32,306 nt of DNA from Candidatus Neomarinimicrobiota bacterium (GCA_022567655.1 JADFGO010000015.1:1-32306); one strand, 5' to 3'; shown: positions 845 to 15,676, counted from the first letter of the stretch. Notes: generated by a model from the letters alone, not told the origin. A program made the numbers and translations.

Positions 845-1380
845 TGGTCAATGATCTACTGCGATTTATTCCTTTAGCCGTTTTATCAAATACCGTTTTT
901 CCTCTGACGTTTGATCCAATACTGCTCTTCTATGCGGCTCCATATCCTCTCGGTACTGCTTGGATTTTTGCAGTATTAGGTAGCATTAGTGCGGCTTTTG
1001 GAGGGATAATTGACATAAAACTGCTAAGATCTCTGAGCAACCGAGTTCCAATTACTACTAAGTTTGTTATCCCTGACGTGACACACTTCAGATTCTATAT
1101 TTGGATTGTTTTGTTTGCTCTTTCGCCCATACCATTTACTTTCATCCGGGTGGCCATGCTCTGGAGCAAGCCCGATCCAGTGCTCTATGGTCTTTCAGTG
1201 GGAATTGGTAGGTTACCACGTTACCTGCTTACAATATACCTTTGGCAGAGTCTCACTCTTCCAGTCTGGGTCAGTGGTGCTCTATTGCCATCTGCCTTGG
1301 TGTTAGGTCTTTGGCAGTATTGGTTTAGAAAACGCTCATCCGGGACCTCTTCAAAAGCATTGAGTGAGACAGTAAAGTGA
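844..1380 (+). CDS. Small integral membrane protein, VTT/DedA-like
   Basis: A 178-residue hydrophobic protein with about four to five membrane segments. Features that recall VTT (SNARE-associated, DedA/YqaA-like) proteins are an early PYPLGTAW segment, a glycine-rich helix (GSISAAFGGIIDI), and a later GIGRLPRY motif before another membrane span. Members of that superfamily are thought to move lipids or undecaprenyl-phosphate across membranes, but this is a short and divergent version and no substrate can be assigned. The ATG overlaps the stop of the preceding Cys/His repeat gene in a TAATG junction, so the pair forms a small operon. Composition is AT-rich like its neighbour and unlike the core genes beyond 1570, consistent with an accessory origin. 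It could instead be an unrelated membrane protein. Confidence 0.55.
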   Translation: MVNDLLRFIPLAVLSNTVFPLTFDPILLFYAAPYPLGTAWIFAVLGSISAAFGGIIDIKLLRSLSNRVPITTKFVIPDVTHFRFYIWIVLFALSPIPFTFIRVAMLWSKPDPVLYGLSVGIGRLPRYLLTIYLWQSLTLPVWVSGALLPSALVLGLWQYWFRKRSSGTSSKALSETVK

Positions 1381-1460: not shown

Positions 1461-1564
1461 ATGAAAAAACTCATAAGTATATATGTATCTCTGTTTCTGG
1501 TATTCTCAACCGACTCCAAGCAAGCGATTTCGTCCAGACGAGGAAGATGGTGTTGTTGAAGTAA
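1461..1564 (+). pseudogene. Scrap of a T9SS-secreted protein gene: signal-peptide-like start plus last codons of the sorting tail
   Basis: From ATG 1461 a frame encodes a signal-peptide-like start (MKKLISIYVSLFLVFST). From about 1515 the DNA carries, in a different frame, the last 15 codons of a type IX secretion C-terminal sorting tail, ending DFVQTRKMVLLK and stop TAA at 1562-1564. The mature part of the protein is absent and the two pieces are out of frame, so this is a remnant, perhaps of an internal deletion. It is also possible that the hydrophobic start belonged to a different gene: a frame with GTG 1377, overlapping the previous stop, reads through it and ends at 1559. The tail is a near-identical inverted copy of 14387-14432. 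It lies only 7 bp from the stop of the convergent yjbQ. Confidence 0.6.
1515..1560 (+). repeat. 46-bp inverted repeat, left copy (T9SS tail coding DNA)
   Basis: These 46 bases match the reverse complement of 14387-14432 with one mismatch (position 1524, A here, G in the other copy read in the same sense). Both encode the end of the same T9SS sorting tail. The copies point at each other and bracket about 12.8 kb. Confidence 0.9.
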
Positions 1565-1571
1565 GCAGCGC

Positions 1572-1970
1572 TCACTTCCCCACCACCTGAACGATCACGC
1601 GTCTGTTGCGCGGGCCGTCGAATTCGCAAAGGAATATCGACTGCCACGTACCGAGAGTGAGCCTGCCTTCTTCCACAGGAATCTGGACGGATGAGCCGAA
1701 AAGGGAGGTTTTTATGTGCGCGGCGGAATTTCCTTCCGAGTGAGTGTATCCATCCTGCATCGGAACCATCTTATTTATCTCCATGAGAATATCTTTCGCG
1801 ACGTTCGGGTCGGCGCCCTCGTTTATCGTTATTCCCGCCGTAGTGTGGGGGACGTAAACTGTGCATACGCCGTTTTTGACTTCAGTCCGTTGTAGTTCGT
1901 TTTGAACCTGGCTCGTGACGTTGACGAATTCGGTCGAAGAGCGGGTGTTTACTGAGAATTGAGATGGCAT
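1572..1970 (-). CDS. yjbQ: YjbQ family protein (UPF0047)
   Basis: A 132-residue protein with the full UPF0047/YjbQ signature: VPHTTAGITINEGADPNV near residues 40-57 (H42 and E51 conserved) and the HSEGNSAAHIKTSLFGSS block in the second half, ending with the usual RRVIVQVVGK-type strand. The length is typical of the family. E. coli YjbQ has thiamin-phosphate synthase side activity and many members are annotated as secondary thiamine-phosphate synthase, but the physiological role is unsettled. The ATG at 1970 follows a TGAGGT Shine-Dalgarno that overlaps the stop of the upstream gene, 7 bases away. It is the last gene of a six-gene minus-strand operon. Its stop lies 7 bases from the T9SS-tail remnant, so there is no room for a normal terminator. 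Confidence 0.93.
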   Translation of the reverse strand: MPSQFSVNTRSSTEFVNVTSQVQNELQRTEVKNGVCTVYVPHTTAGITINEGADPNVAKDILMEINKMVPMQDGYTHSEGNSAAHIKTSLFGSSVQIPVEEGRLTLGTWQSIFLCEFDGPRNRRVIVQVVGK

Positions 1971-1977
1971 TCTGACC

Positions 1978-3237
1978 TCATGTTTTTTGCGGTTTCTTTC
2001 TGGCAGCGGGGAATAATATATTGTTCAACAGCAGCCGGTAGCCGGGTGAATTCGGGTGCAGCTCGAGATTTGTCGGCGGGTCGTTAACGTGATGCCGCGC
2101 GTCCTCCGGATCGTGCCCCCCGAGAAAAGTGTAAGTCCCTCTTCCGAAATTTCCGTGCATGTACTTGACTTCATCTGCCGATTCAACCTCTCCCATGATA
2201 ACGACATGGTCTTTTATAAGGTGTTTCCGGAATGAGGTCGTTTGTCCCATAAACCCTTTTATGACCCCTACATGGTTTTGAGTGAGCATAGACGGCACAG
2301 GATCGTGCTTTGCCGAAAACTCGAAGAGTGAAAAATAATCCGTTTCCGCGAGACGCGGATTCGCGCCGCTTGACGGCACGGCGTCGATGTCCGAAAACTC
2401 ATAGATCATCGGGTCCTTTACAAGTTTGAAATCCTTAAACGCCAACGTTTTAGAGTAGTCGAGCTTTTTATCCGCATCCGGATCGACCGGAGTCATATCG
2501 AACGGCACGCCGACAATATCTACTCCTTCAGCCGCTAACGCTATGTCATAGCTGTCTGTTGCCGAACACATCGCAAATAGAAAGCCACCGCTGCCTACAT
2601 ATTCCTTTATCACGCGCGCTACGGCTTTTTTCTGCTCTGATACGCTCGGATAGCCGAGGCTGGCTGCCATCTCTTCGTACTGAATCTGCTGCCGGATATA
2701 CCATGGCGCGCTGTGGTACGAGGAGTAAAACTTGCCGTACTGCCCGGTGAAATCTTCATGGTGCAGGTGAAGCCAATCGTACCGGGAGAGGTTCCCTCTC
2801 AGGACTTCCGGGTCCCATAATTTGTCGTAATTGATTTCGGCATACGTAAGGGCTAACGTGACGGCGTCGTCCCACGGTTGAGTGTTGGAGGGTGTATATA
2901 CCGCTATGCGCGGCACCTTTTCGAGCAGAATAACTTCCATGTTGTTGGCTTCTATCTCTGCGTACACGTCGATAATTCGGCTTGACGCAACTGTCTCGGA
3001 GCTTACTCCGCGTATCCTGCATTCCCGCGCGATCTTATCTGAATAGTCTATCAGGAAAGAACCGCCGCGGTAATTCAGCAGCCACTCGACTTCCAAGTCC
3101 GCTTCCAATATCCAAAAGGCGATGCCGTATGCTTTAAGGTGATTGGTCTGTGTTAAATCCATAGGTATGAGAAGTTTTTGCCCCTGAAGAAGGTTGAGAT
3201 TGAACAGAAAAAATATAATGGTAAGGAGATGTTTCAA
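1978..3237 (-). CDS. Secreted protein of the family often annotated 'asparagine synthetase B' (GATase-like, function unknown)
   Basis: A 419-residue protein read from a TTG at 3237, the first start that gives a clean signal peptide (LKHLLTIIFFLFNLNLLQGQ); a longer frame has its ATG deep inside the upstream gene. The TTG lies one base after the upstream stop. Family landmarks are LLIPMDLTQTNHLKAYG, EWLLNYRGGSFL, YDWLHLHHEDFTGQYGKFY, GGFLFAMCSATDSYDIALA, GGHDPEDARHHV and HPNSPGYRL near the C-terminus. From memory this family is widespread in Bacteroidota and frequently named asparagine synthetase B. That name is not supported here: there is no N-terminal nucleophile cysteine domain, no ATP-pyrophosphatase domain, and the protein is exported. 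A strand followed by a cysteine (FAMCSA, about residue 222) suggests a class-I glutamine-amidotransferase-like fold. A related motif occurs in the DUF4159 protein of the same operon. Confidence 0.85.
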   Translation of the reverse strand: MKHLLTIIFFLFNLNLLQGQKLLIPMDLTQTNHLKAYGIAFWILEADLEVEWLLNYRGGSFLIDYSDKIARECRIRGVSSETVASSRIIDVYAEIEANNMEVILLEKVPRIAVYTPSNTQPWDDAVTLALTYAEINYDKLWDPEVLRGNLSRYDWLHLHHEDFTGQYGKFYSSYHSAPWYIRQQIQYEEMAASLGYPSVSEQKKAVARVIKEYVGSGGFLFAMCSATDSYDIALAAEGVDIVGVPFDMTPVDPDADKKLDYSKTLAFKDFKLVKDPMIYEFSDIDAVPSSGANPRLAETDYFSLFEFSAKHDPVPSMLTQNHVGVIKGFMGQTTSFRKHLIKDHVVIMGEVESADEVKYMHGNFGRGTYTFLGGHDPEDARHHVNDPPTNLELHPNSPGYRLLLNNILFPAARKKPQKT

Positions 3238-3238
3238 T

Positions 3239-5125
3239 CTAATTGACCTTATTTGAATCTGCAATTTCCCGCAGCTTTTTTCTCGCTCTTTCCGAGTACA
3301 GGCTTCTCGGGTGTTCGATAAGGAGTTTTTCGTAATAATACACCGCAGCTGCCCGGTCTTGCAGTCCGACCTCACTGACCTCAGCCGCCGCCACGAGAGC
3401 TTTGTCATTCAGATCAGATTCGGGAAAAATCTCCAAAAAGCGGTCGAAAGTCTCTTTGGATTCTCGATATCTTCCCATTTTCGCCGACAGTTCTCCCGCC
3501 ATGAAGAGGGCGTCGTCCGAGAAGGGGGAGTCCGGGTGTTCGTCGGTCAAGGACAAAAAAGCGGAGCGCGCCTCAGAATGTTTCCTGCGGTATGAGAGGA
3601 GATCCGCCTTTGCGTACATTTTCAATTCTTCCATCGCCGATGCGGTTGTATGGCTTTTTGCGATCTGTATCAGTATGCTCAGCTCGAGCACATCATTCAT
3701 GAGCTTGTCCTCAAAATCGATTTCAAAGATCAATTCGTTCAGATGATATAAGGCGCTGTCGAGCTCACCGCTGAAGTATTCGATCCTGCATGCGGAAAAT
3801 TTAGCGTGCAGGCGGAGCTCTTCGGACCTAGCTCTTTCGGCTAACTGTAAATACGATCCCTTAGCAGTTTCCAGCATGCCCCTTTCAAGAGAGATGTCCG
3901 CTAATCTCATCAGCGCAGGTTCAACGATCTCAGGTTTGCGGGAAGCTTTGAGAGAACTTTCGAAAGCTCTCTCCGCCTCATCGAGATTTTGCAACCGATT
4001 CAAATTTATCTCACCCATTCGGAAGTAAGCCCTGCCCGAAATCGAGCTGTTGGCGTAAGTAGATGCTATGGAGTCATATAGCGCAATCGACTGCGGAATG
4101 GCCGGCGCCTCGTTTATACCTTCTCCAAACCGATTCGGGTGCGCCAGCAGGTAGTCGGAATCGGGATAAGATCGTGCGGTTTCGCTTAATTCAGTCAGCT
4201 CTGCGAGAAGAAAATAAACCTGAGGGTAAAGACGACTTTCGGGTTTTAAAGTCATGAAGCGATAAGCGGCTTCGATTCCGATTTTATAATGCTTTTCCCG
4301 TTTCAGGGTTTGTATAAAGTCGAAAAGAACCCAGCCATCCGATTCGGAATTTTGCTCGAGAACGACGTAACCCTCGAAAGATTCTCTTAAATTGCCGCTT
4401 CGATAGTGATAATCAGCGACGAGCTGCCTGAGGTTTGCGTTATCGGGCGATTCGGCAAGTCCTTTTTCAAGCCGGGAAAGTACCAACCGGACGGTGGCGC
4501 TGTCGCCGCTGAACCTTGAGAGCTGTTTTCGCACGTAGTTATAATTTTTTGAATCAAAACTAAGAAACTTCACATATTCTTCCGTAGCCTTGAGGTAGTT
4601 AAGGCGGGCGGCATAGAAATTAGCCAGATCACGAGTGACCGGAGCCGGATTCTCCATGTTATTCTGAGCATCTACGTAAATGTCCACAGTCTCATCGAAA
4701 AACCGATTGCTCTGTAAGACTAAAGCAACGGTTCGGCGCAGTGAATAATTTTCCGGATGAGTATCAGTCAGTCTGCGGACAATTGACATACCCTTTTCGA
4801 CCTCTCCTGATTTCAGGTAGGCATCCACCATTTCCGCTTCGATCCGCCAGTTTGCCGGATGACGTTCGAGCGCCCTGTTCAGAATCTCTAATATCTTATC
4901 GTACCTGTTAAGACGGGAGTAGATGTCTTTCAGCGAGTTGCTGAACGGAATATTATCCGGGTTATTGCGAGCCAGTCTTTCGAGTATTTCCGCCGCTTCT
5001 TCTAATTTGCCGGCTCGTTGATATGCCTTTGCCCTTTTGAAAAGCATCTCGTTTTCTATCACCTGTGCGTCTAAGGTGTTCAGGAGAGAAATAAACAGAA
5101 CGACTAAAGTGCAAAAAACTCTCAT
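3239..5125 (-). CDS. Periplasmic TPR-repeat protein
   Basis: A 628-residue protein with an N-terminal signal peptide (MRVFCTLVVLFISLLNTLDA, cut before the Q) followed by tetratricopeptide repeats along its whole length. Clear repeat cores include AKAYQRAGKLEEAAEILERL near residue 33, ILNRALERHPANWRIEAEMV, and MGRYRESKETFDRFLEIFPE near the C-terminus. TPR arrays are scaffolds for protein-protein contact. The start overlaps the stop of the DUF4175 gene by four bases (ATGA), and the next gene starts one base after its stop, so it is translationally coupled on both sides. It is probably an assembly partner of the DUF4175 protein in the periplasm. No catalytic motif is visible. Confidence 0.88.
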   Translation of the reverse strand: MRVFCTLVVLFISLLNTLDAQVIENEMLFKRAKAYQRAGKLEEAAEILERLARNNPDNIPFSNSLKDIYSRLNRYDKILEILNRALERHPANWRIEAEMVDAYLKSGEVEKGMSIVRRLTDTHPENYSLRRTVALVLQSNRFFDETVDIYVDAQNNMENPAPVTRDLANFYAARLNYLKATEEYVKFLSFDSKNYNYVRKQLSRFSGDSATVRLVLSRLEKGLAESPDNANLRQLVADYHYRSGNLRESFEGYVVLEQNSESDGWVLFDFIQTLKREKHYKIGIEAAYRFMTLKPESRLYPQVYFLLAELTELSETARSYPDSDYLLAHPNRFGEGINEAPAIPQSIALYDSIASTYANSSISGRAYFRMGEINLNRLQNLDEAERAFESSLKASRKPEIVEPALMRLADISLERGMLETAKGSYLQLAERARSEELRLHAKFSACRIEYFSGELDSALYHLNELIFEIDFEDKLMNDVLELSILIQIAKSHTTASAMEELKMYAKADLLSYRRKHSEARSAFLSLTDEHPDSPFSDDALFMAGELSAKMGRYRESKETFDRFLEIFPESDLNDKALVAAAEVSEVGLQDRAAAVYYYEKLLIEHPRSLYSERARKKLREIADSNKVN

Positions 5126-8100
5126 CCGGAGTCATCTACCCCGGATTTTGTTTCGTTAATCCTGAGAGAGTTAAAATAATTCCTTATAAGTTCCTGATAG
5201 TCCCTCGCGTACCCTTCTCTCAGGGCGTTAATGAGCTCGCGGTTGAGTAGTTCGCCGCGTTCCCCCAAATCTTCGGGAAGACCCTGTGGACCGAGCCGGG
5301 TTATGTCAACAGCGCCTTTTGACTTCCGTTTGTTGCTTTTCTCTCTTTCTCTCATAGATTTTTGGGAATCGAGCATGCGGGAAAGAATCCGTTGCTGTCT
5401 CTGGATTGTATTCCGCGAGAATCGCCGGTTTTTAAGCTCGTTTACCACCTGTTCCATATCATCTACAATTGCGTCGAGCCTTCCGGGAGCGTCGCTTTTC
5501 CCAGCCATCTCCTTCATCATTTTTTCGAGGGATCTCTGAAGCTGTTCCTGCCGTGCTGCGAGCCTCCGCATTGCGTCGCGTATTCCTCTCGCACCGGGAT
5601 TTGAGCCCGGAAGCAAGTTCAGGGATTCGTTATTGATCCCTCCCTGCGCACTGGCCATCTGCTGAAGCTGCCGCATATACTGTTCAAATCCTGTTCCGGA
5701 GCCGGAGGCGGATAGTTGAGACATCGCCCCGCGGAGCGAAAGAATTGTTTCGTTCAATCCTCCAAGAGCTATCTGCTGCGATCGAGTGCTCTTTCTGATG
5801 TTGCGTTCCGAGAGATTCCTGACGGCATCGGACATTGCGCCGGAGGTCTTGCCTATCGAACGGGCGATTGACGGATTGATCCCGAACGTTTTCTTCGATA
5901 AGTCCACGAGGTCTTCCACCATTCCGCCGAGATCGCGCCTGAACTGTTCCTGCTTGCTTGCGATCTTGTCGATCTCAGGGCTGTTACTTTTCAGTCCTTC
6001 GCTGTTTTCTCCCAATTCTTCCTGATTTTTTGAAAGCTGAATCGCTTTTCTTATTATCTTCTGAAATCCGGCTAATACTTCCTCTAATTGTTTCCGGCGC
6101 ATTTCTTCCTTGAGGGCGGTCAGCTTACTGAGCATCGCTTCCATTTCGGATTGAGCCGATTCGGCGTATTTATTCGAGGCGGAGAGATCGCCCTGATCCA
6201 TCGACTGTTGAGCCTCCTGAACTGATTCCGGCAGCTCCCCGCTTTCCATCTCCGACCTTAACCCGGAAATTTTAGAGGTGGGCATTTCGGGATAAGGTTC
6301 GGTAAGTCCTTCCAATTTTTTCATCTCGTTTGCCAGCTTCGAAAGTTCATCGGAGACGTTTTTTTCCTCTTTGGAGAGCTCTTTGAGATCAGCGACGTCC
6401 TCTTTCCGAAGAGACTGAGTTTGATCCGTTATCTTTTGCTGCGCCTTAACCAGTTCGTTCATCCGTTTCAATATTTCGTCCATTTTCTGCTCAGCCTGCA
6501 CCCGGCGGAATATTTCGAGAGTCCGCTCGAGTTCTCTGGCGAAGCGATCCTGAGAGATCATGAACTCCTGTAATGCCATTGCTATATCTTCTTCACGCAG
6601 CGAAGACATAGCGTCGCGCAGCCGTTCCATTGCTTCTAATAGTTCAGGCGAAGCCAATTCCTGAAATAGATTCTGAAGTTCGAGGTACATCTCGAGAGTT
6701 TCGGATGTGAAGAGCTGGTTCTCTTCTCCTTCCTTGATGATCTCGTCGAGTTTTTCGGTAATTGATTTTATCTTCTCTTCTAGCTCTTTTTGACGCTGTA
6801 AAGTCTCATCGATCTTTTGTTTTTTGCTCCAATTCAGTTCCGGGTTTTTCTTGAGCTCTTCACTGATCTCGACCATAGCTTGCCGGATTTCTTTTGCTTC
6901 ATCGAGAACATCTTCCGCTATCACATGCGCTTCATAGGTGTTATCTTCAAGCCGTTGGTAGAGTTCAGCCATAGTAGGGAAGCGGGCACGATAGGTACGG
7001 CTCTTTGCGTATTTCGGTCCGGAGTACATGTCATTGTCGTAAGAGAACGCAAAATATTCGACAACGTCTCTGGGTACAAGTTCAAAAAGGGAGAGATCGA
7101 ACATATACGGTAATTCCAAACTGTTTTTTTTGAGCCGGGGCAGTGAAATCGGTATCGTCTTAAAGGAAGAATCCGGTGAAAAATCGTTAAGGATACGGAA
7201 AGCGATACCGGCAGAGCTTATACCAAAATCATCATCTATACGAATCCTGAGGGGTATGAGCATCGACGCATTCAGATCATAAGTATCTTCCTGTTCGAGG
7301 ATAGATATGACCGGATAGGCATCACGCAGCGCTACGAGGTTGAATTGAACAGGGTCGAGATTGCTCACTCCCTGAGTGTCCCTAAGCGAGAAATAAAAAT
7401 TATCGCTTTCTGAAATTACGAATCTTCCGTGCGCTCTATTGCCCTCTGTTTTCAGCGAAACAGGTTCAATAGTGCTGAACGTAATCTCCGCGAAGGCGAG
7501 GCGTTTGTTCGATTCGATTGTCACTGAAGCCCCGGTTCCTGCGAGTGCGCTTATTTCGCTGATGTTGCCTTCCGCTATCTGAGTTTGAAGACCGGAGTAT
7601 TCGGGATAATCGAGACGTATCAAAAGTTTTTGAACGGTCGGGCGTTCGATGACCGTGACCGTATAATTTTCAGATTTATAGCTGCCCCAGGATTTAAGGA
7701 TATTCGGCTCTGCGGCTGTGAATCTGTAACTGAAGCTTGCGCTTACGGCGGGATAGGATAAATGCATCTTGTATGACGAATCTGCCTCGATTTTGAATGA
7801 TTCCGCTATTCCGTTTTCGGTTATCTCTACTTTCCAATCATGAGGAATTGATGTTCCGGACGCAAGCGCCGTAAGGTTCACACTGTCACCTTTAACCACT
7901 TCAACGTCTCCGGGTTGAACGTCCAACCTGAAGGGGACAGGATGCGAAAATTCCTTGTTTGGCATTGCAAGCCTGAAAGCTGCCTCTCGCAGCGTGCCCG
8001 GGGAGATGAAAAATATCATTCCGGCTGTCAACACTGCGGTTATAAATCCTATTTTAGATCTTTTTCCCCGGTTTTTATCTATATAATCTCCCGTTTTTAT

Positions 8101-8523
8101 CTGAGAGACCGAGCTGCTGATTTCACTTATGGACATTTCAATAAGTTCAGGTGAGTAATTTTTATCATCGGGTAAGCGTATCAATTGAAGAGCGTTTAAC
8201 AGTTTATCCTTTATCGTAGGGTCGCCTTTTCCTATTGTTCGGGCGATCTCCTCGTCCGAGTAATCCGGATTCTGTCCCGATTTGGCTTTTCTGAACTTCA
8301 ACAGTGTAATAAGCGCCGACAGAACTACACCGACGAGAAAACCAATTGAAATAAACCAGCGCAACGCATCTCCGAACCGGAATACACCCTCTAAAAATAT
8401 GAGCAGGAGCGCCGAGGTAATAAAGAGGCTCCCGTAAAAAAACAGTGAGAGCTTGAAACGGCTGAACGCCAATTTATCCCTCAACTGACGGATTTTTTCG
8501 GTTATGAGATATTTTTCTTTCAT
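5122..8523 (-). CDS. DUF4175 family membrane-anchored coiled-coil protein
   Basis: An 1133-residue protein. Two membrane spans lie near residues 25-48 and 54-77, and a third near 157-175. A beta-rich, Ig-like extracytoplasmic region follows (about 190-510; for example VEVVKGDSVNLTALASG). Then comes a long Glu/Lys/Met/Gln-rich coiled coil (about 525-1080) and a short C-terminus. This architecture matches the DUF4175 family, large uncharacterised proteins of Bacteroidota and relatives often found near DUF4159, DUF58, MoxR and BatA-type genes. Here only DUF4159 is present beside it. The start lies 4 bases after the DUF4159 stop, and the stop overlaps the TPR gene by 4 bases. I infer a scaffold spanning the inner membrane and periplasm; no enzymatic motif is visible. 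Confidence 0.85.
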   Translation of the reverse strand: MKEKYLITEKIRQLRDKLAFSRFKLSLFFYGSLFITSALLLIFLEGVFRFGDALRWFISIGFLVGVVLSALITLLKFRKAKSGQNPDYSDEEIARTIGKGDPTIKDKLLNALQLIRLPDDKNYSPELIEMSISEISSSVSQIKTGDYIDKNRGKRSKIGFITAVLTAGMIFFISPGTLREAAFRLAMPNKEFSHPVPFRLDVQPGDVEVVKGDSVNLTALASGTSIPHDWKVEITENGIAESFKIEADSSYKMHLSYPAVSASFSYRFTAAEPNILKSWGSYKSENYTVTVIERPTVQKLLIRLDYPEYSGLQTQIAEGNISEISALAGTGASVTIESNKRLAFAEITFSTIEPVSLKTEGNRAHGRFVISESDNFYFSLRDTQGVSNLDPVQFNLVALRDAYPVISILEQEDTYDLNASMLIPLRIRIDDDFGISSAGIAFRILNDFSPDSSFKTIPISLPRLKKNSLELPYMFDLSLFELVPRDVVEYFAFSYDNDMYSGPKYAKSRTYRARFPTMAELYQRLEDNTYEAHVIAEDVLDEAKEIRQAMVEISEELKKNPELNWSKKQKIDETLQRQKELEEKIKSITEKLDEIIKEGEENQLFTSETLEMYLELQNLFQELASPELLEAMERLRDAMSSLREEDIAMALQEFMISQDRFARELERTLEIFRRVQAEQKMDEILKRMNELVKAQQKITDQTQSLRKEDVADLKELSKEEKNVSDELSKLANEMKKLEGLTEPYPEMPTSKISGLRSEMESGELPESVQEAQQSMDQGDLSASNKYAESAQSEMEAMLSKLTALKEEMRRKQLEEVLAGFQKIIRKAIQLSKNQEELGENSEGLKSNSPEIDKIASKQEQFRRDLGGMVEDLVDLSKKTFGINPSIARSIGKTSGAMSDAVRNLSERNIRKSTRSQQIALGGLNETILSLRGAMSQLSASGSGTGFEQYMRQLQQMASAQGGINNESLNLLPGSNPGARGIRDAMRRLAARQEQLQRSLEKMMKEMAGKSDAPGRLDAIVDDMEQVVNELKNRRFSRNTIQRQQRILSRMLDSQKSMREREKSNKRKSKGAVDITRLGPQGLPEDLGERGELLNRELINALREGYARDYQELIRNYFNSLRINETKSGVDDSG

Positions 8524-8527
8524 CGTT

Positions 8528-9202
8528 TCAATGTGTCAATGCCCAGACTATTACATTGGTGCCCATCTTCAACGCTGCTCTGCGGCGCTCTGCGCTGTCT
8601 CCGTGCACCGATTCGTCCTCCCATCCGTCTCCGAGATCACTTTCATAGCTATAAAAGAGTACGAGTCTTCCGTTATGAAAGATTCCAAATGCCTGGGCGG
8701 GGTTCCCGTCGTGTTCGTGAATTTTCGGCAATCCGTTCTTCATAGAGAAATGGATGCTGAATATTCCGTGAGAGAACGGCAGCTCAAGAAGCTCCTTGTC
8801 GGGAAAAACTTTCTTCATCTCCCGTCTGAAGGATTTGTCCATACCGTAATTATCATCGGCAAATAGAAATCCACCGGACGTGAGATACTCCCTGAGTCTG
8901 ACGGCATCGGATTCGGAAAAATTTATATTGCCGTGTCCAGTCATGTATAATACAGGATATCTAAACACGTCTTCGTCCTGAATTTTAACCCGTGCTTCCT
9001 TTTTTGCGGTTTTGATGGACGTATTCTCACGGATGTAGCTCAGCAGGTTCGGGAGGCTGCTCGGGTCGGAATACCAGTCGCCTCCGCCGCTGTATTGGAG
9101 TCGCGCAATTGTGAATTCACCCGGATCAGCCGGATTCATGGATATTAATTTTAGAATTAACCATAGTCCGGTTATCAGTTGTGAGTAGGCTAAACCGACC
9201 AT
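8528..9202 (-). CDS. DUF4159 domain protein
   Basis: A 224-residue protein starting at ATG 9202, two bases past the upstream stop. A longer frame to 9232 would run into the upstream gene and adds no signal. The start MVGLAYSQLITGLWLILKLI gives a signal anchor, followed by the DUF4159 domain: FTIARLQYSGGGDWYSDPSS, YPVLYMTGHGNINFS, LREYLTSGGFLFADDNYG (about 104-120) and GRLVLFYSYESDLGDGWED. DUF4159 has a flavodoxin/GATase-like fold according to family descriptions I recall. In Bacteroidota and other phyla it occurs with DUF4175 and batA-like aerotolerance genes. The LFADDNYG stretch replaces the place where a nucleophile cysteine would sit, so it is probably not a glutaminase. Its GGFLFA motif is echoed in the secreted protein at 1978-3237. 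Confidence 0.88.
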   Translation of the reverse strand: MVGLAYSQLITGLWLILKLISMNPADPGEFTIARLQYSGGGDWYSDPSSLPNLLSYIRENTSIKTAKKEARVKIQDEDVFRYPVLYMTGHGNINFSESDAVRLREYLTSGGFLFADDNYGMDKSFRREMKKVFPDKELLELPFSHGIFSIHFSMKNGLPKIHEHDGNPAQAFGIFHNGRLVLFYSYESDLGDGWEDESVHGDSAERRRAALKMGTNVIVWALTH

Positions 9203-9203
9203 T

Positions 9204-9704
9204 TTAAAAGTAATAAAACCCGATAACGACAACCATCGCGGCTGCCGTAACTGTCTTCATCGTTTTACCGCCTAACGCTCCAATGAAGGCTCCAATGCCC
9301 GCAAGCAATGACCTGTCGAAATTGCGGGAGAGAAAATATTCTCCGATGAACGCTCCCCCGAACGCCCCGGCAAATGCGCCGATTAGAGTCCCGACGATCG
9401 GCAAGATCATAGTACCCCAAATAGCTCCGACAATTCCACCGATTATCGCACCGGCTACTGATAATCTTGAGCCGCCGAATCTTTTCGTCATAAATCCGGA
9501 GAGGGCGAATTCAAGAACTTCGAGCAGGACGGCAATTCCGAACAAAACAATAATCAACAAGAGACTGATGAGTTCAAAGTCCGTTAAAACGGCGAATAAA
9601 AGAGCTGCGGAAGCTATTATGAACGTACCCGGAAGCCCCATAGGAGTAATGATGACTCCGGCTAATAATACTATCCAAAGCACGGTTCCGGTAAGAATTT
9701 CCAA
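9204..9704 (-). CDS. DUF456 family membrane protein
   Basis: A 166-residue, very hydrophobic, Gly/Ala-rich protein. It has paired membrane hairpins (GVIITPMGLPGTFIIASAAL, LLIIVLFGIAVLLEVLEFAL) and long glycine-zipper stretches (AGAIIGGIVGAIWGTMILPI, GTLIGAFAGAFGGAFIGEY). This arrangement, with the PMGLPGTF motif, is diagnostic of DUF456. The start is a TTG at 9704; an in-frame TGA lies two codons upstream, so no longer form exists. It is first in the six-gene operon, with a candidate sigma-70-type promoter at 9741-9769. Function unknown; glycine-zipper proteins of this sort usually oligomerise in the membrane. Confidence 0.85.
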   Translation of the reverse strand: MEILTGTVLWIVLLAGVIITPMGLPGTFIIASAALLFAVLTDFELISLLLIIVLFGIAVLLEVLEFALSGFMTKRFGGSRLSVAGAIIGGIVGAIWGTMILPIVGTLIGAFAGAFGGAFIGEYFLSRNFDRSLLAGIGAFIGALGGKTMKTVTAAAMVVVIGFYYF

Positions 9705-9740
9705 ATATCACTCTTTTTTCAGCATGGTTGCCATAATTCC

Positions 9741-9769
9741 AAGATATTCACCCTATTAGATTAAATCAA
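9741..9769 (-). promoter_or_regulatory. Candidate promoter of the DUF456-DUF4159-DUF4175-TPR-yjbQ operon
   Basis: Read on the minus strand there is TTGATT (9769-9764), a 17-base spacer, and TATCTT (9746-9741), about 37 bases before the TTG start at 9704. It is the best sigma-70-like pair in this divergent gap. The equivalent plus-strand promoter for the gene at 9860 is not clear. Confidence 0.4.
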
Positions 9770-9859
9770 GTGAAGCCGGATAAAAGTTGAATTTTGTGTG
9801 TTAGAGATTGAAATTAAAGGAGATAGGGCTTTAACCTTTATATAGGATATTGATTACCA

Positions 9860-11551
9860 ATGGGACTTGGAAACAAAATATATCTCTTTTTCCTGTTGAC
9901 GGTGTTAATTCAGCCGGAAAGTTCAACAGCACAATTCCTGGGTTTCAAAAAGAATGAATACCAGACACCTTTCAGCCTGACGGTTTTCGATTTTAAAGCG
10001 GGTATCGAGCAGTTTAATCATAAGTCGATTGAAACTTTAATGGGTGTAAGCACCACGAGGCTGGCTTCCGTATATACGCTTGATTTCGCGAAGTTCAACT
10101 TCACCAGATATTTCTGGAAACAGAGTATGGTTGATTTGCAGACGGGATTCTCGGTTAGTTACCTTTTATCGATTCAGTTCAAAACACTTCCTGCCGCAAA
10201 TCAACCTGCGAATAACTTCATAGGTACCGCGGCGCTTTCACCAAGAGTGTTAGAATATAATCTGAACGAAACGTTCAACTATTCTGTGGGAAGCAGACTG
10301 CTGCTTTATGGGCAGATATCGTACGGATACGCACAGGTGGACGTCATCAGGAGCGAAGAGGGTTCATCTTACCTCAAAGGTACGGCTAATCCCTTAGGAA
10401 TCGGCGTGGGAGTCCAGATATTGCTCAGAAGCCACGAATCTTCAAGAGTAGGTTTAGGATTTGAATTCAAATTCACGGATTTGAGAGTAAAGAACCTGGA
10501 CGACCCGGAAGGAATCTATCCGTTCAATGAGATAGACCTCTCTCATTTCGGAGCCACGGTAACGCTCGGTATGATATTCGGGGGTCGAAAGACAGAGGGG
10601 GACAGAGCGGAAAAATTATACAAAGCGGGAAAATACATAGATGCCCGCGCGGAGTATACCAAGTTTCTCAGGCTCCATCCGGGCCATGCGAGAGCGGGGC
10701 GCGCCCGCCGTCAGATCACCGAATCCGACAGGCAAATTCCGGGCGAAATGTACGCCGCCGCATCGGTTGCTCAGGCAGAAGGGAATCATGATCAAGCGCT
10801 CGCACTCTATGACAGGATCAACCGCCTGAACACATGGGATTTCAACCTTTCGAGGGAAGTCTCTCTGCGGCAAAAGGAAATTGCCCGGATTTATTTCGAG
10901 AACGGGTTGAAAAGTCATGTCGATTGGGACTTTCCTGGTTCCGAGAGATGGTTTATCCGGACGGAACTGATTGACAGCAGTTTGAGCGAGGCGGTGAGGA
11001 TCGCCAAATCCGAGATGTTCCTCACAAAAGCGAAGCGGATGATAGAGGAGGAAAAGATAAGGGGCGCGGAGAGCTTGTTGAACCGGCTTGTGGAGATGAA
11101 TCCCGACCTGAGGCATGAGGCTGAAATTGTGTACAGCAAGATTGCGCGGATACTTTTTGAGGAAGGGATTGAAGCGTTAAACAGAAACGCTTATATCTAC
11201 GCGAAAGATTCGTTCGAGCGTTCGGTAAAATATAATAAAGACCTTAGGAAAAAGGCGGATTTTCAGATTGCGTTTGTGGAGGAAGCGATAGCGCAGGAGA
11301 AGATCAGCGAGGCAAAGAAAAAACACGCCGAAGTAGTGGCGCAGAATAAAAGACATTTAGCCGACAGGCTGATAGCAGGGGTCGACAAGGACCGTGTTCT
11401 GAGGCTGTGGGGCATGCCTGCCTATAAATATTACGTCACGGACGGTCCGGTTAATTACGAGCTCTGGGTTTACCAATCGACGAGAAGCCAATATTATTAT
11501 CTATATTTCTCGGAAGACAGGCTGCACAGCTGGGAAACAGCTGCGTTCTAA
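9860..11551 (+). CDS. Outer-membrane-type protein: beta-rich domain + TPR + BamE-like C-terminus
   Basis: A 563-residue protein with a signal peptide (MGLGNKIYLFFLLTVLIQPE..., ending near STAQ). Residues of about 25-250 alternate polar and hydrophobic strands typical of an outer-membrane beta domain (for example RLLLYGQISYGYAQVDV, GLGFEFKFTDLRV). About 255-495 are TPR-like helical repeats (AEKLYKAGKYIDARAEYTKF, MYAAASVAQAEGNHDQALAL). The last 60 residues (IAGVDKDRVLRLWGMPAYKY ... YELWVYQSTRSQYYYLYF) resemble the SmpA/BamE-type motif: a turn, 'WG.P', then a strand with aromatic residues and 'W' near the end. It stands alone on the plus strand between two minus-strand groups and converges on the permease gene four bases beyond its stop. 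Exact role unknown; envelope assembly is a guess. Confidence 0.6.
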   Translation: MGLGNKIYLFFLLTVLIQPESSTAQFLGFKKNEYQTPFSLTVFDFKAGIEQFNHKSIETLMGVSTTRLASVYTLDFAKFNFTRYFWKQSMVDLQTGFSVSYLLSIQFKTLPAANQPANNFIGTAALSPRVLEYNLNETFNYSVGSRLLLYGQISYGYAQVDVIRSEEGSSYLKGTANPLGIGVGVQILLRSHESSRVGLGFEFKFTDLRVKNLDDPEGIYPFNEIDLSHFGATVTLGMIFGGRKTEGDRAEKLYKAGKYIDARAEYTKFLRLHPGHARAGRARRQITESDRQIPGEMYAAASVAQAEGNHDQALALYDRINRLNTWDFNLSREVSLRQKEIARIYFENGLKSHVDWDFPGSERWFIRTELIDSSLSEAVRIAKSEMFLTKAKRMIEEEKIRGAESLLNRLVEMNPDLRHEAEIVYSKIARILFEEGIEALNRNAYIYAKDSFERSVKYNKDLRKKADFQIAFVEEAIAQEKISEAKKKHAEVVAQNKRHLADRLIAGVDKDRVLRLWGMPAYKYYVTDGPVNYELWVYQSTRSQYYYLYFSEDRLHSWETAAF

Positions 11552-11555
11552 GGGT

Positions 11556-12611
11556 TTAGACGAAACGGTAGCTTTTAAGTCCTTTAACTAATTCTTCTCC
11601 GATAACCTTTATTATACTCGTCAGCGGAATGGCGAATATCAACCCGGTTAAACCGAGCAAACTTCCACCGACAAGAACTACCAGCATAACCACGAGTGGA
11701 TGAAGATCAACAGCGTTTGACACCACTACCGGAGTTATCAATACGTTATCTATCAACTGTACGATTGCGAAGAGGGCAGCTATCTTGACAATTATCATAA
11801 GACTTTCCGGGTTGCTCATGAGCGCAACTATAATAGCCACGGTTGCGCCGATCAGGGGTCCCATATATGGAATCATATTTGTCAGACCTGCGATTATGCC
11901 GACAAAGTAAAAGAAAGGAATACCGAGCATATAAAGACCGATAGAACTCAATATGGCAACGATAAGTCCGTCCAACAGCACACCGCGAATATAACTACCG
12001 AGTTGATTTTCAATTCTGTAAACCATTACGAGGGACATTTCGAAAAACCTGTTAGGTACGATTCCGATAAGAGTTTTCTTTATCGTCCGCTGGTCTTTGA
12101 GGAGAAAGAATGTCATAAACAGTACTATTAATAAAGAAGTGAAAACCGATACAAAACCGAGCACTACTCCAACCCCCTTTGAAAGCGTGGAGGAGAGGTA
12201 GCCCCCCATTTTTTCAGTTATCATCCGAGTATCGAGCATTGGGAACCGGGATTTGATAAAATTACTGATATTTTGGAAGACCTTTTCGGGTCCCTGCTGT
12301 GTTATGGTTTCCTGCAGCGATTTTGCTTCTTTTGTAATGGGTGGAATGATAAAATTAAGCGCTATTCCAACTACAACAAACCCGATAAGAAACACGATGA
12401 TTATTGAGAATGCACGCGGAATTCCCTTGCTCTCCAAATTGTTCACAAGCGGTACTAACAGCGAATAAAGTAAGAGCGAGATGAGAAAGAGAATCAGAAT
12501 ATCTTCCACCCGGGGAAGAAAATAAAAGAGCGCTATTATTATTCCGATGGTGACCATCAGGCGGGTGATATACCTGAAGACCGATTGCTGTGCGGCTGAA
12601 CGTCCGGTCAT
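11556..12611 (-). CDS. AI-2E family transporter / PerM-type permease
   Basis: A 351-residue polytopic protein with about eight membrane spans and the AI-2E_transport (PF01594) pattern: a pair of N-terminal helices (GIIIALFYFLPRVEDILILF, YSLLVPLVNNLESKGIPRAF), a central amphipathic stretch, then GIIAGLTNMIPYMGPLIGAT and DNVLITPVVVSNAVDLHPLV, and a final LLGLTGLIFAIPLTSIIKVI span. Those last three motifs are diagnostic. Members include AI-2 exporters and sodium/proton antiporters, so the substrate is open. The start overlaps the stop of the cyclic-nucleotide-binding gene by four bases, implying coupled translation and possibly a shared signal response. Confidence 0.9.
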   Translation of the reverse strand: MTGRSAAQQSVFRYITRLMVTIGIIIALFYFLPRVEDILILFLISLLLYSLLVPLVNNLESKGIPRAFSIIIVFLIGFVVVGIALNFIIPPITKEAKSLQETITQQGPEKVFQNISNFIKSRFPMLDTRMITEKMGGYLSSTLSKGVGVVLGFVSVFTSLLIVLFMTFFLLKDQRTIKKTLIGIVPNRFFEMSLVMVYRIENQLGSYIRGVLLDGLIVAILSSIGLYMLGIPFFYFVGIIAGLTNMIPYMGPLIGATVAIIVALMSNPESLMIIVKIAALFAIVQLIDNVLITPVVVSNAVDLHPLVVMLVVLVGGSLLGLTGLIFAIPLTSIIKVIGEELVKGLKSYRFV

Positions 12612-13150
12612 GCCGTGGATTCGGAAGAATTTTCTTCAAACGCAGCCAATTGCTCGCGCAGCTCCTGCGCATTGGCGTTTGAATGCCTCAGTCTCTCGCT
12701 GACCACACGAGCCAGATTTACTATGATCTTCACTGCGAGTTTCGGGCGCCGGTCGACGAGTTCATACAGGTCCGTGCGGTAGAAACCGAGTATCATCGAA
12801 TCGCTCAAACTGATGGCAGTGGCTGTTCTCGGAGATTCGTCAAGCAGTGCTATCTCGCCGAAGAAATCGCCGTCTTCGAGTGTGGCGAGCGTTTGTCCGT
12901 GGTTGCCGCCGTAGTTCTTGACGATGGAGACCTTACCATCCATAATGATGTACATACCGCCGCCGGGGTCTTTCTCACGGAATATTTCTTCATCGGTCGC
13001 GTAAGAACGTTTATGGATAAGTTTTTCAACCGCGGTAATCTCTTTGGGTGAAAGGTTTTCGAATATAGGAACCTTCCGGATAGCATGCGCTTCCTCTGAT
13101 TCACTTCTCCGGTTCCTGAATATGTTACTCCAAACTGAATCGTTGCCCAT
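12608..13150 (-). CDS. Cyclic-nucleotide-binding domain protein
   Basis: A 180-residue protein consisting of one cNMP-binding domain (about residues 28-150) with a short helical tail. The phosphate-binding cassette is intact (FGEIALLDESPRTATA, near 100-115), preceded by the beta-roll hallmark GGGMYIIMDGKVSIV and followed by a helix ending LARVVSERLRHSNANAQELR. No helix-turn-helix follows, so it is unlikely to be a CRP-like DNA binder; it may be a regulatory subunit. Its stop overlaps the start of the AI-2E/PerM permease by four bases, so gating or regulating that permease is a natural inference. A GGAGG lies 12 bases before the ATG, longer than ideal. Confidence 0.9.
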   Translation of the reverse strand: MGNDSVWSNIFRNRRSESEEAHAIRKVPIFENLSPKEITAVEKLIHKRSYATDEEIFREKDPGGGMYIIMDGKVSIVKNYGGNHGQTLATLEDGDFFGEIALLDESPRTATAISLSDSMILGFYRTDLYELVDRRPKLAVKIIVNLARVVSERLRHSNANAQELREQLAAFEENSSESTA

Positions 13151-13289
13151 TCTGTGCGAGCCTCCAAATAAGAAGATAATATATTAGTGAGTGCGGTCAG
13201 TTATGTCAAGCGAAAATGGGAGGGGGAGAGGAAGGCGGTTTAGATTACCGGGGCGTATGATTATTCGGAAAAACCTGTTTTTCGTGGCG

Positions 13290-13307
13290 GTCGGGGCAAG
13301 CCCCGAC
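13290..13307. repeat. Perfect GC-rich hairpin beyond the hydrolase gene
   Basis: GTCGGGG and CCCCGAC form a perfect stem of at least seven pairs around a four-base loop, seven bases beyond the stop of the alpha/beta hydrolase gene (13314). No T-run follows on the minus strand (the next bases are CGCCACG), so it is a weak terminator at best and more likely a REP-like dispersed palindrome. Confidence 0.55.
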
Positions 13308-13313
13308 TCGCAC

Positions 13314-14195
13314 TTAATTCAAAACTCCAGCTCTTATAAGGAATGGTCTAACCTCGTTCCAGAACAGGCTCCAATCATCGATAAGGTCGTTATGTCCTCT
13401 TTCGTATGTGATCAGTTCTCCGTTAAGCGATGCCGCTAAAAGTTTCTCGCTGTGTTTATAGGGTATGATCCTGTCTCTACTGCCGTGAACGAACAAAACC
13501 GGATTGTCGTATGATTTAATGATATTGAGGTTATCGAACTTATCCCTCGCGAGAAAACCGGGAAGGTAATAATCCGAAGCCAGAGAACTTACGTTTCTGA
13601 ACGGCGACATCAAAATCATCGCTGCCGAAGGACGAGCGTCCGCAAGAGCGCAGATGACGCCGCTTCCGATTGACCTGCCGAAAAGCACTATCCGCGCAGC
13701 GTCAACTTCCGGTTTACTTACCAGTGAATCATACGCAGTGATAAATGTCTCGGTCAGACTCGCCTCGTCCGGCGTTCCTTCCGAGCGTCCGTAACCCGGA
13801 TACTCAACAAGCAGCACGCACATACCCATTTCTCTGATCTCCTGCACGATCGGGAGCCAGTGGTCGATCAGTTCCGCGTTGCCGTGCGCTATAATCATCG
13901 CGGGAGCGGGCAGCTGCTTTGAACTGTCCGACGGTAGAAGATACCACGCTTCGGTCCGTCCCGACTCCGTTTTGAGCCAGATGCGTTCAAGACCCGGCAC
14001 ACTTTCGGAGATGTCCGGCGGTGTACGAATAACATGGCGCGGATAGATAATGCTTCGCTGCATGAAGAAATAATAACCGGAATACACAGCGTAAAACAGA
14101 GTTCCGAAGGCAAGCATACGCAAGGATATTTTTAAAAGGTTTTCCAATGTTTTCCGTTCCGGATTGAATTTAAGAGAGTGGAAGCTGTTTATCAA
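13314..14195 (-). CDS. Membrane-anchored alpha/beta hydrolase (ABHD13/BEM46-like)
   Basis: A protein of up to 293 residues with one N-terminal membrane anchor (LAFGTLFYAVYSGYYFFMQ, about 28-46) and a complete alpha/beta hydrolase fold: oxyanion-loop HGNAELIDHW, VEYPGYGRSEG, nucleophile elbow GRSIGSG (Ser near 175), acid in HGSRDRIIPY, and catalytic His in RGHNDLID. This is the ABHD13/BEM46-like pattern; such enzymes act on esters or thioesters, but the substrate cannot be read from sequence. The longest frame begins at TTG 14195, where I see no good Shine-Dalgarno. Starts at an internal TTG near 14147 or the ATG at 14117, just before the anchor, are real alternatives. It is transcribed alone. 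Confidence 0.88.
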   Translation of the reverse strand: MINSFHSLKFNPERKTLENLLKISLRMLAFGTLFYAVYSGYYFFMQRSIIYPRHVIRTPPDISESVPGLERIWLKTESGRTEAWYLLPSDSSKQLPAPAMIIAHGNAELIDHWLPIVQEIREMGMCVLLVEYPGYGRSEGTPDEASLTETFITAYDSLVSKPEVDAARIVLFGRSIGSGVICALADARPSAAMILMSPFRNVSSLASDYYLPGFLARDKFDNLNIIKSYDNPVLFVHGSRDRIIPYKHSEKLLAASLNGELITYERGHNDLIDDWSLFWNEVRPFLIRAGVLN

Positions 14196-14272
14196 GTTGA
14201 TTGGTTATTGCTAAAACAGCTGCCCAGCTCCCATCAGAATTTTTTCGGTTGCTTAACCATATGCAAAAGCTG

Positions 14273-14299
14273 GATTGGATATAAAGGGGCACTAATATA
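14273..14299 (+). repeat. Diverged direct repeat, copy 1
   Basis: These 27 bases (core GATTGG-n-TATAAA-n-GG-n-CAC) match 15919-15945 at 22 of 27 positions in the same orientation. The two copies sit near the two ends of the AT-rich gap that holds the lipoprotein gene. They may be element ends or a shared promoter-type sequence. Confidence 0.4.
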
Positions 14300-14382
14300 G
14301 CCAAGAATAGGTGAAAACAGTGATATTGGCGCGAAATTAGTACGGTTTTGAGTCCAATTTTAAAATTTATGATGTAGTGAGA

Positions 14383-14510
14383 CTATTTCAACAACACCAT
14401 CTTCCTCGTCTGGACGAAATCGCCTGCTTGGAGGCGGTACATGTAAACACCGCTTGCGACTTCCATTCCGAACTTGTCTGTGCCGTTCAATGTTTTGGAA
14501 TAGTATCCCC
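14383..14510 (-). pseudogene. T9SS (Por) C-terminal sorting tail remnant
   Basis: On the minus strand this stretch encodes a textbook type IX secretion sorting tail of about 41 codons: GYYSKTLNGTDKFG, then MEVASGVYMYRLQAGDF, then VQTRKMVLLK and stop TAG at 14385-14383. The NGTD.......SGVY.YRL...G.....KMVLLK pattern is the Por_Secre_tail type A domain, which directs outer-membrane translocation and anchoring in FCB bacteria. Upstream of about 14510 the frame loses the usual domain and there is no start, signal peptide or cargo, so this is the 3' end of a lost or moved gene. The last 46 bases form an inverted repeat with 1515-1560. The short plus-strand frame over it is only its antisense. Confidence 0.75.
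14387..14432 (-). repeat. 46-bp inverted repeat, right copy (T9SS tail coding DNA)
   Basis: Partner of 1515-1560; 45 of 46 bases are identical in reverse complement. See the finding on the bracketed 12.8-kb block. Confidence 0.9.
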
Positions 14511-14562
14511 TATATCTACTGCAATCATTATGTTCTTGTTCGTTGTGTTATTTCCAGTTTAA

Positions 14563-15588
14563 TCAATTAGGTTCAAACCAATTAGGTTCAAACAAAAAAT
14601 CGATCCAGAATTGAAAATTTCCTTCTAAAAATGAATGATTTTCAATACCAATTATATATGGCGTTGGTCCAAAGTCAATTATTACTAAATAATTTCCTAA
14701 GGTATTTTCTTCTATTAAAGGGAAATTAGTGAAATATTCATTTATAAAATCAATGTCCAGGTAGGTGTCAGGAAGAATATTGCCATCCGAAAAATGAATA
14801 ATTGTATTATCGTGATGCCAAATATACAGTTCCATTTGATATTCTATTGGCACATTCCCAACATTAGTAATATGAAAATATTCAAATGTGTCTGGGTTCA
14901 AAAAACTAACAGTACCCGTCTGCGAAATATCATCCATCTCGTAGCCTCGCAGGAAAGGTGACTCAAATAGTGATTTATCAGCGAGAGTTGGTTTAATTAT
15001 GACTCCCATTTTCGTACCGCCAACATCATAATCATCTAGCACTTCTATAGTATCACCATCGGTTATATAGTGGTATGTGATGATGAGTGTGTCCATAAAA
15101 GCACCAACGCTCATCTCAAGTAAGGTGCCTACTCCCTCAATTGGTATAACGTGTTCCTTGATGATGTTTACAATCGGTAAAGCTGATAGTTCAGCCCCTT
15201 GAGTACTGGCCGGTATAAGCCCAATGGTTTCAGGATAAATATATAAGTCCTGAGCGTTGAAATGTATGTCAAAAACATCCTGGTTCCCAACATTCATGAG
15301 CACATATTGTAAGGTACGTGTGGCTTTTAACTCACCATAGTAAATATCTACGGCTGCAGCTTTAGCAAGAACCGTAAGCATTTCAGATTTCGGCAGCCAT
15401 TGTTGGCCGTTTTCATCTGTTATGACCTTTGATAAGTCGTTAGTGTTCAGAGGCACTAACCGAAGTTGCCCCACAGCTTCATCTGTTTTCTCTTCTGGAT
15501 CAACTGAACTGTTATCGCAACCAACTATCACTATTACAGCCAATAGGGCGATTAACCAGAATTGAAATAACCAGACATATTTTGACAT
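14563..15588 (-). CDS. Putative lipoprotein of unknown function
   Basis: A 341-residue protein with a lipoprotein signal: a positively charged start, a hydrophobic stretch and a lipobox IVGC (Cys near residue 24), followed by an acidic linker (SSVDPEEKTDEAVG). ATG 15588 has an excellent Shine-Dalgarno (GGAGG, 5 bases away). The mature part is acidic, rich in Ile, Asp, Tyr and Asn, and probably all-beta, with two related-looking stretches: TLQYVLMNVGNQDVFDIHF, and EYFHITNVGNVPIEYQMELY. Both have a 'NVGN' turn as in Ig-like or CARDB-type domains. The last codons are a 15-base tandem duplication (14566-14595, one mismatch) giving FEPN twice. I recognise no family. Low GC and isolation between two remnants suggest an accessory or transferred gene. 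Confidence 0.75.
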   Translation of the reverse strand: MSKYVWLFQFWLIALLAVIVIVGCDNSSVDPEEKTDEAVGQLRLVPLNTNDLSKVITDENGQQWLPKSEMLTVLAKAAAVDIYYGELKATRTLQYVLMNVGNQDVFDIHFNAQDLYIYPETIGLIPASTQGAELSALPIVNIIKEHVIPIEGVGTLLEMSVGAFMDTLIITYHYITDGDTIEVLDDYDVGGTKMGVIIKPTLADKSLFESPFLRGYEMDDISQTGTVSFLNPDTFEYFHITNVGNVPIEYQMELYIWHHDNTIIHFSDGNILPDTYLDIDFINEYFTNFPLIEENTLGNYLVIIDFGPTPYIIGIENHSFLEGNFQFWIDFLFEPNWFEPN

Positions 15589-15676
15589 GATATCCTCCGC
15601 TCCGCTAAGTTACTATTGGATCTATCCACATGCAAATTATTTTTAATATTACTCAATATGAGATATTCAAAATCTG

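What the first reader, a model, noticed from the sequence alone, without database searches (positions are those of the whole stretch)
1515..14432. Inverted T9SS sorting-tail copies bracket a 12.8-kb core block
46 bases at 1515-1560 and 14387-14432 are reverse complements with one mismatch. Both encode the last 15 codons of a type IX secretion sorting tail (DFVQTRKMVLLK), but neither is attached to a complete gene. The left copy abuts the yjbQ stop (8 bases from repeat end to the start of its stop codon), and composition changes at both ends: core-like inside, AT-rich outside. T9SS tails are multi-copy and can be nearly identical within a genome. I infer that they act as recombination substrates, so that inversion or insertion here has scrambled secreted-protein genes and flanked the core block. 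That would make sorting tails a source of chromosome plasticity, a role I have not seen described for them.
Basis: partly seen in the sequence, partly recalled or inferred. Interest (0 to 1): 0.7.

Follow-up and report, generated by a model that had tools for sequence, protein, structure and literature searches.

The report
Secretion-tail ends bordering swapped gene cassettes
In a family of uncultured marine bacteria (Neomarinimicrobiota), the end of a common 'secrete me' gene tag also occurs by itself as a short repeat that marks the edges of small gene packages traded between genomes; the two copies in this window are edges of two such inserted packages, not the ends of an inverted block.

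Summary
The repeat is real: 55 nt, 95% complementary, at 1509-1563(+) and 14384-14438(-). The inversion reading fails. Gene order from yjbQ through the CRP-like gene and M23 peptidase to 31.3 kb is collinear in two related genera, and yjbQ's neighbour in all four relatives is greA. In this genome greA lies on contig C20, beside more tails. So each tail sits at the edge of a separate insertion: one between greA and yjbQ, one between the CRP-like gene and M23.

The repeat is one of about 36 DNA-level copies in the genome; 28 lie outside any T9SS domain. In four same-family genomes, orphan tails form co-directional arrays, mostly one accessory gene per interval. Flanks up to 98% identical over about 580 bp switch at the tail. 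One clean 1.34-kb cassette indel is bounded by tails. Tails therefore do behave as seams for gene exchange, but as direct-repeat cassette boundaries.

It is not an integron: no IntI above cut-off, no attC boxes, no attC-like fold. The crossover point is unresolved (p = 0.69). I favour homologous recombination between tails; a dedicated recombinase is not excluded. I found no earlier description in the papers searched.

The parts
1509..1564 (+). Left orphan T9SS tail end (36-nt core 1529-1564, reads FVQTRKMVLLK-stop); 3' boundary of the left cassette, next to yjbQ
   Evidence: no T9SS ORF upstream (34-aa frame)
269..844 (+). ORF of 191 aa, cysteine/histidine-rich repeats, in the left cassette
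   Evidence: no above-cutoff Pfam match
844..1380 (+). ORF of 178 aa, probable membrane protein, in the left cassette; stop lies 129 nt before the tail homology
   Evidence: no Pfam match
1572..1970 (-). yjbQ (UPF0047): first conserved chromosomal gene after the left insertion; its neighbour in four relatives is greA
13221..16180 (.). Right insertion between the CRP-like gene and the M23 peptidase, absent from G001 and G003; approximate ends (the M23 gene of this genome starts at 16049 or 16088 within the poorly aligned margin)
14383..14510 (-). Right orphan T9SS tail (about 40 codons; 36-nt core 14383-14418), 3' boundary of the lipoprotein cassette
   Evidence: TIGR04183 18.5 bits, below the cut-off of 23
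14563..15588 (-). ORF of 341 aa, probable lipoprotein by its N-terminus (IVGC), in the right cassette; stop lies 52 nt before the tail
   Evidence: no Pfam match
13314..14195 (-). Alpha/beta hydrolase gene following the right tail, located elsewhere in relatives
13284..13316 (.). Dispersed hairpin repeat at the edge of the right insertion
   Evidence: Sequence; variants seen
15689..15954 (.). Dispersed noncoding repeat upstream of the lipoprotein gene
   Evidence: 78% to G004:C21:6986-7185; short matches in other islands

Best explanation
The two sequences are orphan copies of the last codons of a T9SS sorting tail that now serve as the 3' boundary of exchangeable gene cassettes. SHOWN: copies are numerous in this genome and its family; most are not attached to a T9SS gene; they sit just after accessory genes, all on one strand per contig (the window contig is the only exception); flanks are decoupled at the tail between genomes; a tail-bounded cassette indel exists; both window copies sit at insertions relative to relatives. 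INFERRED: a non-T9SS gene becomes fused to a tail fragment by an illegitimate deletion or insertion (hence the graded 5' edge). The 36-60 bp tail, nearly identical across genera, then lets the gene-plus-tail unit be gained, lost or swapped by recombination between direct tail copies, most likely homologous recombination. In the window the left cassette (ORFs 269-844 and 844-1380, tail core 1529-1564) is the last unit of an array between greA and yjbQ; the right cassette (lipoprotein ORF 14563-15588, tail core 14383-14418, minus strand) lies in a 2.9-kb insertion that also carries a relocated hydrolase gene.
For: Census: 36 DNA-level matches in the own genome at E<=0.0025, 28 of them outside any above-cutoff TIGR04183 domain. 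Codon usage gives 10^-5.3 for one tail to have these 11 codons, so the copies share DNA ancestry. Arrays: G004:C21 has about 17 same-strand tails in 30 kb with roughly one ORF per interval, tail usually 15-110 nt after the ORF stop. Strand: 21 of 22 contigs with two or more tails have all tails on one strand; interval ORFs total 13,012 aa on the tail's strand and 1,640 aa opposite. Decoupling: 69 pairs share the 5' flank, 56 the 3' flank, 4 both, e.g. G000:C54:13080 vs G003:C3:73018, 95.6% over 517 bp on one side only, while yjbQ-region DNA is about 76% identical between these genera. Indel: G004:C4 geneA-tail-geneB-tail-downstream vs G002:C40 geneA-tail-downstream. Alignment ends fall near tails on both sides in 16 of 199 cases against 1.9% of sequence. 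Synteny at the window.
Against: Most alignment ends between genomes (about 92%) are not at tails, and the far end of a shared cassette is often not at a tail, so other breakpoints matter too. Many of the 69 five-prime pairs are ordinary homology between T9SS C-terminal domains; with strict cut-offs, by my reading of the list, about 17 decoupled and 3 coupled pairs remain. Some shared 3' flanks are dispersed repeats that also occur away from tails (16 of 24 hits). The crossover could not be mapped inside the tail (p = 0.69). No exchange has been observed directly, and all genomes are drafts. My tail pattern requires a stop codon, so stop-codon conservation in that set is partly ascertainment.
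Confidence: 0.55

Rival explanations
1. Orphan tails are only debris: T9SS genes decay, and the last codons happen to survive next to unrelated genes. No exchange uses them.
For: Graded 5' edge (0 to 33 or more nt of tail homology); truncated and mutated copies around palindromes in this genome; 22 T9SS domains in the genome as a source.
Against: Debris does not explain near-identical DNA across genera, strict co-orientation, one gene per interval, 5' and 3' flanks shared separately between genomes, or the tail-bounded indel.
Confidence: 0.2
2. A dedicated site-specific system: an unidentified recombinase uses the roughly 36-nt tail end as its site, so cassettes insert behind T9SS genes while restoring the last codons.
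For: Sharp 3' edge at the stop codon; integron-like layout of gene then site; gene A of G002:C40 and G004:C4 identical through TTCGT and then switching to another tail version.
Against: The own genome (96.6% complete) has only two XerC/XerD-type proteins among matches to the integron-integrase profile. The ~360-aa recombinase beside arrays in G002-G004 sits at tRNA-Leu, with a duplicated tRNA 3' end in G004, so it is an island integrase. Crossover is not at a fixed position.
Confidence: 0.15
3. One reading: inversion or insertion between the two inverted copies flanked and relocated the 12.8-kb core block.
For: Inverted orientation of the two copies.
Against: The block is collinear with its right-hand neighbours in G001 and G003, and on the left the ancestral neighbour greA points to an insertion, not an inversion.
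Confidence: 0.04
4. A classical integron or an integrase-less cluster of attC sites (CALIN), with tail sequence lying inside attC by coincidence.
For: Co-oriented single-gene cassettes with a repeat just after each gene.
Against: No TIGR02249 hit above cut-off in five genomes; GTTRRRY in 0 of 59 sites; RYYYAAC 6 observed vs 6.5 expected; fold z-scores -0.6 and -1.0.
Confidence: 0.03
5. Assembly artefact: chimeric joins at short repeats.
For: All genomes are draft; short repeats can mislead assemblers.
Against: Repeat units (36-60 nt) are shorter than usual reads; the same junction types appear in separately titled single-cell and metagenome assemblies, and whole cassettes are shared at 93-98%.
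Confidence: 0.03

Closest known systems
Integrons and CALIN (IntI, attI, attC)
   Same: Co-oriented arrays of small accessory genes, each followed by a repeat, with cassettes shared between genomes in different order.
   Different: Site is a protein-coding T9SS tail end; no IntI above cut-off; no R'/R'' boxes; no attC-like fold. Definition taken from PMC9024848.
Orphan module arrays of Rhs/CDI polymorphic toxins (own knowledge)
   Same: A conserved coding stretch is reused as a homology seam, and orphan pieces carrying that stretch lie next to complete genes.
   Different: There the shared stretch lies upstream of variable C-terminal ends; here it is the 3' end of the gene, and most cassettes are unrelated accessory genes.
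Integrative elements that target and restore gene 3' ends, e.g. tRNA genes
   Same: Repeat equals the 3' end of a gene; insertion can leave the target gene intact. A tRNA-Leu island with its integrase carries tail-ended genes in G004.
   Different: The tail repeats are far more numerous and sit between single genes; the island's own duplicated end is the tRNA end, not the tail.
T9SS C-terminal sorting domain, TIGR04183 (Por_Secre_tail)
   Same: The repeat encodes its last codons; 22 above-cutoff domains in the genome.
   Different: Orphan copies lack the rest of the domain and a secreted protein.

Membership tests
Integron / CALIN | Integron integrase IntI with its extra domain | tested here: not met
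   TIGR02249 in G000-G004: best 86 bits against a cut-off of 265.
Integron / CALIN | attC R' (GTTRRRY) and R'' (RYYYAAC) boxes | tested here: not met
   0 of 59 orphan sites have GTTRRRY at the 3' end; RYYYAAC 6 vs 6.5 in shuffles.
Integron / CALIN | Conserved single-strand secondary structure of the site | tested here: not met
   Consensus site folded as DNA: z = -0.63 and -0.97 on the two strands. No attC covariance model was available, so a longer site was not tested.
Integron / CALIN | Array of co-oriented, mostly single-gene cassettes each followed by a site | tested here: met
T9SS substrate gene | Complete C-terminal sorting domain fused to a secreted protein | tested here: not met
   Left copy: 34-aa frame. 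Right copy: 54-aa frame, TIGR04183 18.5 bits against a cut-off of 23.
tRNA-targeting genomic island (host of some arrays, not of the window) | Integrase next to a tRNA gene and a direct repeat of the tRNA 3' end | tested here: met
   G004:C4: tRNA-Leu, 360-aa tyrosine recombinase, second 28-nt tRNA end (2 mismatches) about 12.7 kb away. No such structure was found for the window insertions.
Homologous-recombination seam between dispersed repeats | Flanks exchanged at the repeat, crossover position variable within it | tested here: inconclusive
   Decoupling is clear; the distribution of differences inside the tail does not separate crossover zones (p = 0.69).

The most novel reading that the evidence does not exclude
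A cassette system unlike integrons, with a dedicated but unidentified recombinase whose site is the coding 3' end of a secretion-signal gene, so that inserting a cassette behind a T9SS gene restores the sorting tail and does not damage the host gene.
Probability: 0.15. Interest if true: 0.85.

Novelty: new variant of a known kind. Interest (0 to 1): 0.62.

Why it matters
If right, a protein-sorting signal doubles as the physical seam of an accessory gene pool in an uncultured marine phylum: cassettes with GYD-like, DUF4242-like, ferredoxin, cupin-like, YceI-like and lipoprotein genes are found in different genera at up to about 95-98% identity while core genes sit near 70%. It would be an integron-like way of stocking genes without an integron, and it gives a ready test of whether short coding repeats alone can drive it.

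Tried and rejected
Inversion of the 12.8-kb block: rejected by collinearity. Classical integron: no IntI, attC boxes or fold. The ~360-aa tyrosine recombinase as the cassette enzyme: in three of its four places it sits at tRNA-Leu, and it is absent from G000 and G001. Mapping the crossover inside the tail: not significant. A known structured RNA in the common post-tail leader: only a tRNA reached an Rfam gathering score. The repeat on viral contigs: no match. Literature on Marinimicrobia integrons, T9SS with integron, and T9SS tail shuffling: nothing relevant in the held library.

Full report
WHAT IS THERE. The window is the whole contig C15 (32,306 b) of a 2.14-Mb, 150-contig draft genome, 96.6% complete. 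The inverted repeat is real (55 nt, 95%) and far beyond chance (E = 1.9e-18 over the genome). Both copies read ...DFVQTRKMVLLK-stop, the end of a T9SS sorting tail, and neither belongs to a secreted-protein gene.

THE INVERSION READING FAILS. Window 1572-31336 is collinear with G001:C15 and G003:C10. The only large extra piece inside it is 13221-16180, between the CRP-like gene and the M23 peptidase, which are direct neighbours in both relatives. The hydrolase at 13314-14195 lies elsewhere in relatives at 79-82% identity. On the left, the gene next to yjbQ is greA in G001, G002, G003 and G004 (named from its sequence, not by profile search). In this genome greA is on contig C20, ending near base 3010, followed by a 22-nt tail remnant, accessory genes and a full tail at C20:175-210, the tails pointing the way greA does. 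The simplest reading, inferred because the gap between contigs is unread, is that an array entered between greA and yjbQ and that the window's left tail is its last boundary. The two tails thus mark two independent insertions and face each other by accident of their target sites.

A DISPERSED FAMILY OF ORPHAN TAILS. A sequence model built from 50 copies finds 36 matches at E<=0.0025 in the own genome, 28 outside any above-cutoff TIGR04183 domain. A few of the 28 may be truncated or decayed genes (for example C130:34 at a contig end and C105:4471). The exact codon string has probability about 10^-5.3 under this genome's codon usage, so near-identity in several genera is DNA kinship, not convergence. 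In other families of the phylum, tails with the same amino acids are mostly attached to longer T9SS frames (about 14 of 19 inspected), although genome G131 also has a few orphans.

ARRAYS. In same-family genomes orphan tails form arrays: G004:C21 has about 17 in 30 kb, all on one strand, usually one ORF per interval and the tail 15-110 nt behind the ORF. Of 22 contigs with two or more tails, 21 have all tails on one strand; the exception is the window. Genes in the intervals look like accessory genes, named from sequence resemblance and not confirmed by profile search: GYD-like, DUF4242-like, SnoaL-like, cupin-like, YceI-like, ferredoxin, cyclopropane-fatty-acid-synthase-like, lipoproteins. 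In the window, the two left ORFs and the right lipoprotein have no above-cutoff Pfam match.

TAILS ARE SEAMS. Comparing flanks of 86 tails, 69 pairs share the 5' side, 56 share the 3' side and only 4 share both. Many 5' pairs reflect T9SS domain homology, but well-conserved cases remain: G000:C54:13080 vs G003:C3:73018 (95.6% over 517 bp), G001:C9:71391 vs G004:C21:13863 (93.5% over 480 bp), G003:C3:74428 vs G004:C21:18291 (93% over 569 bp), each with unrelated sequence on the other side. As contrast, the greA region is collinear at 95.8% over 7.5 kb between G003 and G004. Alignment ends between genomes lie within 60 bp of a tail on both sides in 16 of 199 cases, against 1.9% of the sequence; most ends are elsewhere. 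The cleanest event is G004:C4 (geneA-tail-geneB-tail-downstream) against G002:C40 (geneA-tail-downstream): a 1.34-kb unit bounded by tails. Gene A is identical in both through ...GATTTCGT, and in G002 then continues with a tail version close to that of gene B. In front of the matching downstream region, G003:C37 carries three different cassettes.

MECHANISM. Integron membership fails on tested features (definitions from PMC9024848). The tyrosine recombinase near some arrays is an island integrase at tRNA-Leu; in G004 a second copy of the tRNA 3' end lies about 12.7 kb away. The 5' edge of orphans is graded and the 3' edge sharp at the stop codon, as expected if homology simply ends with the gene. 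Differences inside the tail do not reveal a fixed crossover (p = 0.69). I therefore favour recombination between short homologous tails, after occasional illegitimate fusion of a gene to a tail fragment, over a dedicated enzyme. This is inference; no exchange has been observed.

NOVELTY. Homology seams and cassette arrays are known kinds of thing; a T9SS sorting tail in that role is, as far as the searched library shows, undescribed. The library lacks most subscription papers. I rate it a new variant of a known kind.

Noticed in passing
G003:C18:12428, G002:C44:16990, G000:C53:7331, G000:C62:547 and 1371, G000:C75:6928: Palindromes sit at the same codon boundary of the tail (LQAG | FVQT), as GPPAGG or MGRRSASPT; in the first two they are in frame inside otherwise intact T9SS genes. 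Reminiscent of Rickettsia palindromic elements.
   Followed up: partly
own genome, e.g. C2:26758, C38:16714, C75:6980, C102:1335: Palindrome GGGACGCAGATCTGCGTCCC occurs at about 21 loci in the genome; 9 of the 19 examined adjoin a recognisable tail.
   Followed up: partly
after tails at G004:C21:13015, 13863, 18291; G003:C3:72215; G000:C54:13786; G000:C20:2798: A common noncoding leader (up to about 440 nt, roughly 70-90% identical, with ...AAGCGAAAAAGCTAAC...) follows many tails; no Rfam match. Its core also occurs away from tails.
   Followed up: partly
window 15689-15954: Dispersed noncoding repeat with relatives in G004:C21:6986-7185 (78%) and short matches in G001-G004 islands; possibly the other edge of such insertions.
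   Followed up: no
window 13284-13316: Hairpin repeat GTGGCGGTCGGGGCAAGCCCCGACTCGCACTTA at the edge of the right insertion; variants with a different stem but a similar end recur in intergenic regions of this genome, including just after greA on C20.
   Followed up: no
window 13314-14195: Alpha/beta hydrolase gene sits in the CRP-M23 insertion here but elsewhere in G001, G002 and G004, at 79-82% DNA identity, higher than neighbouring core genes.
   Followed up: partly
L232 (JADFON010000104.1) 113-148: One exact tail-pattern match in a contig titled candidate division KSB1, near a contig end; transfer or binning error.
   Followed up: no
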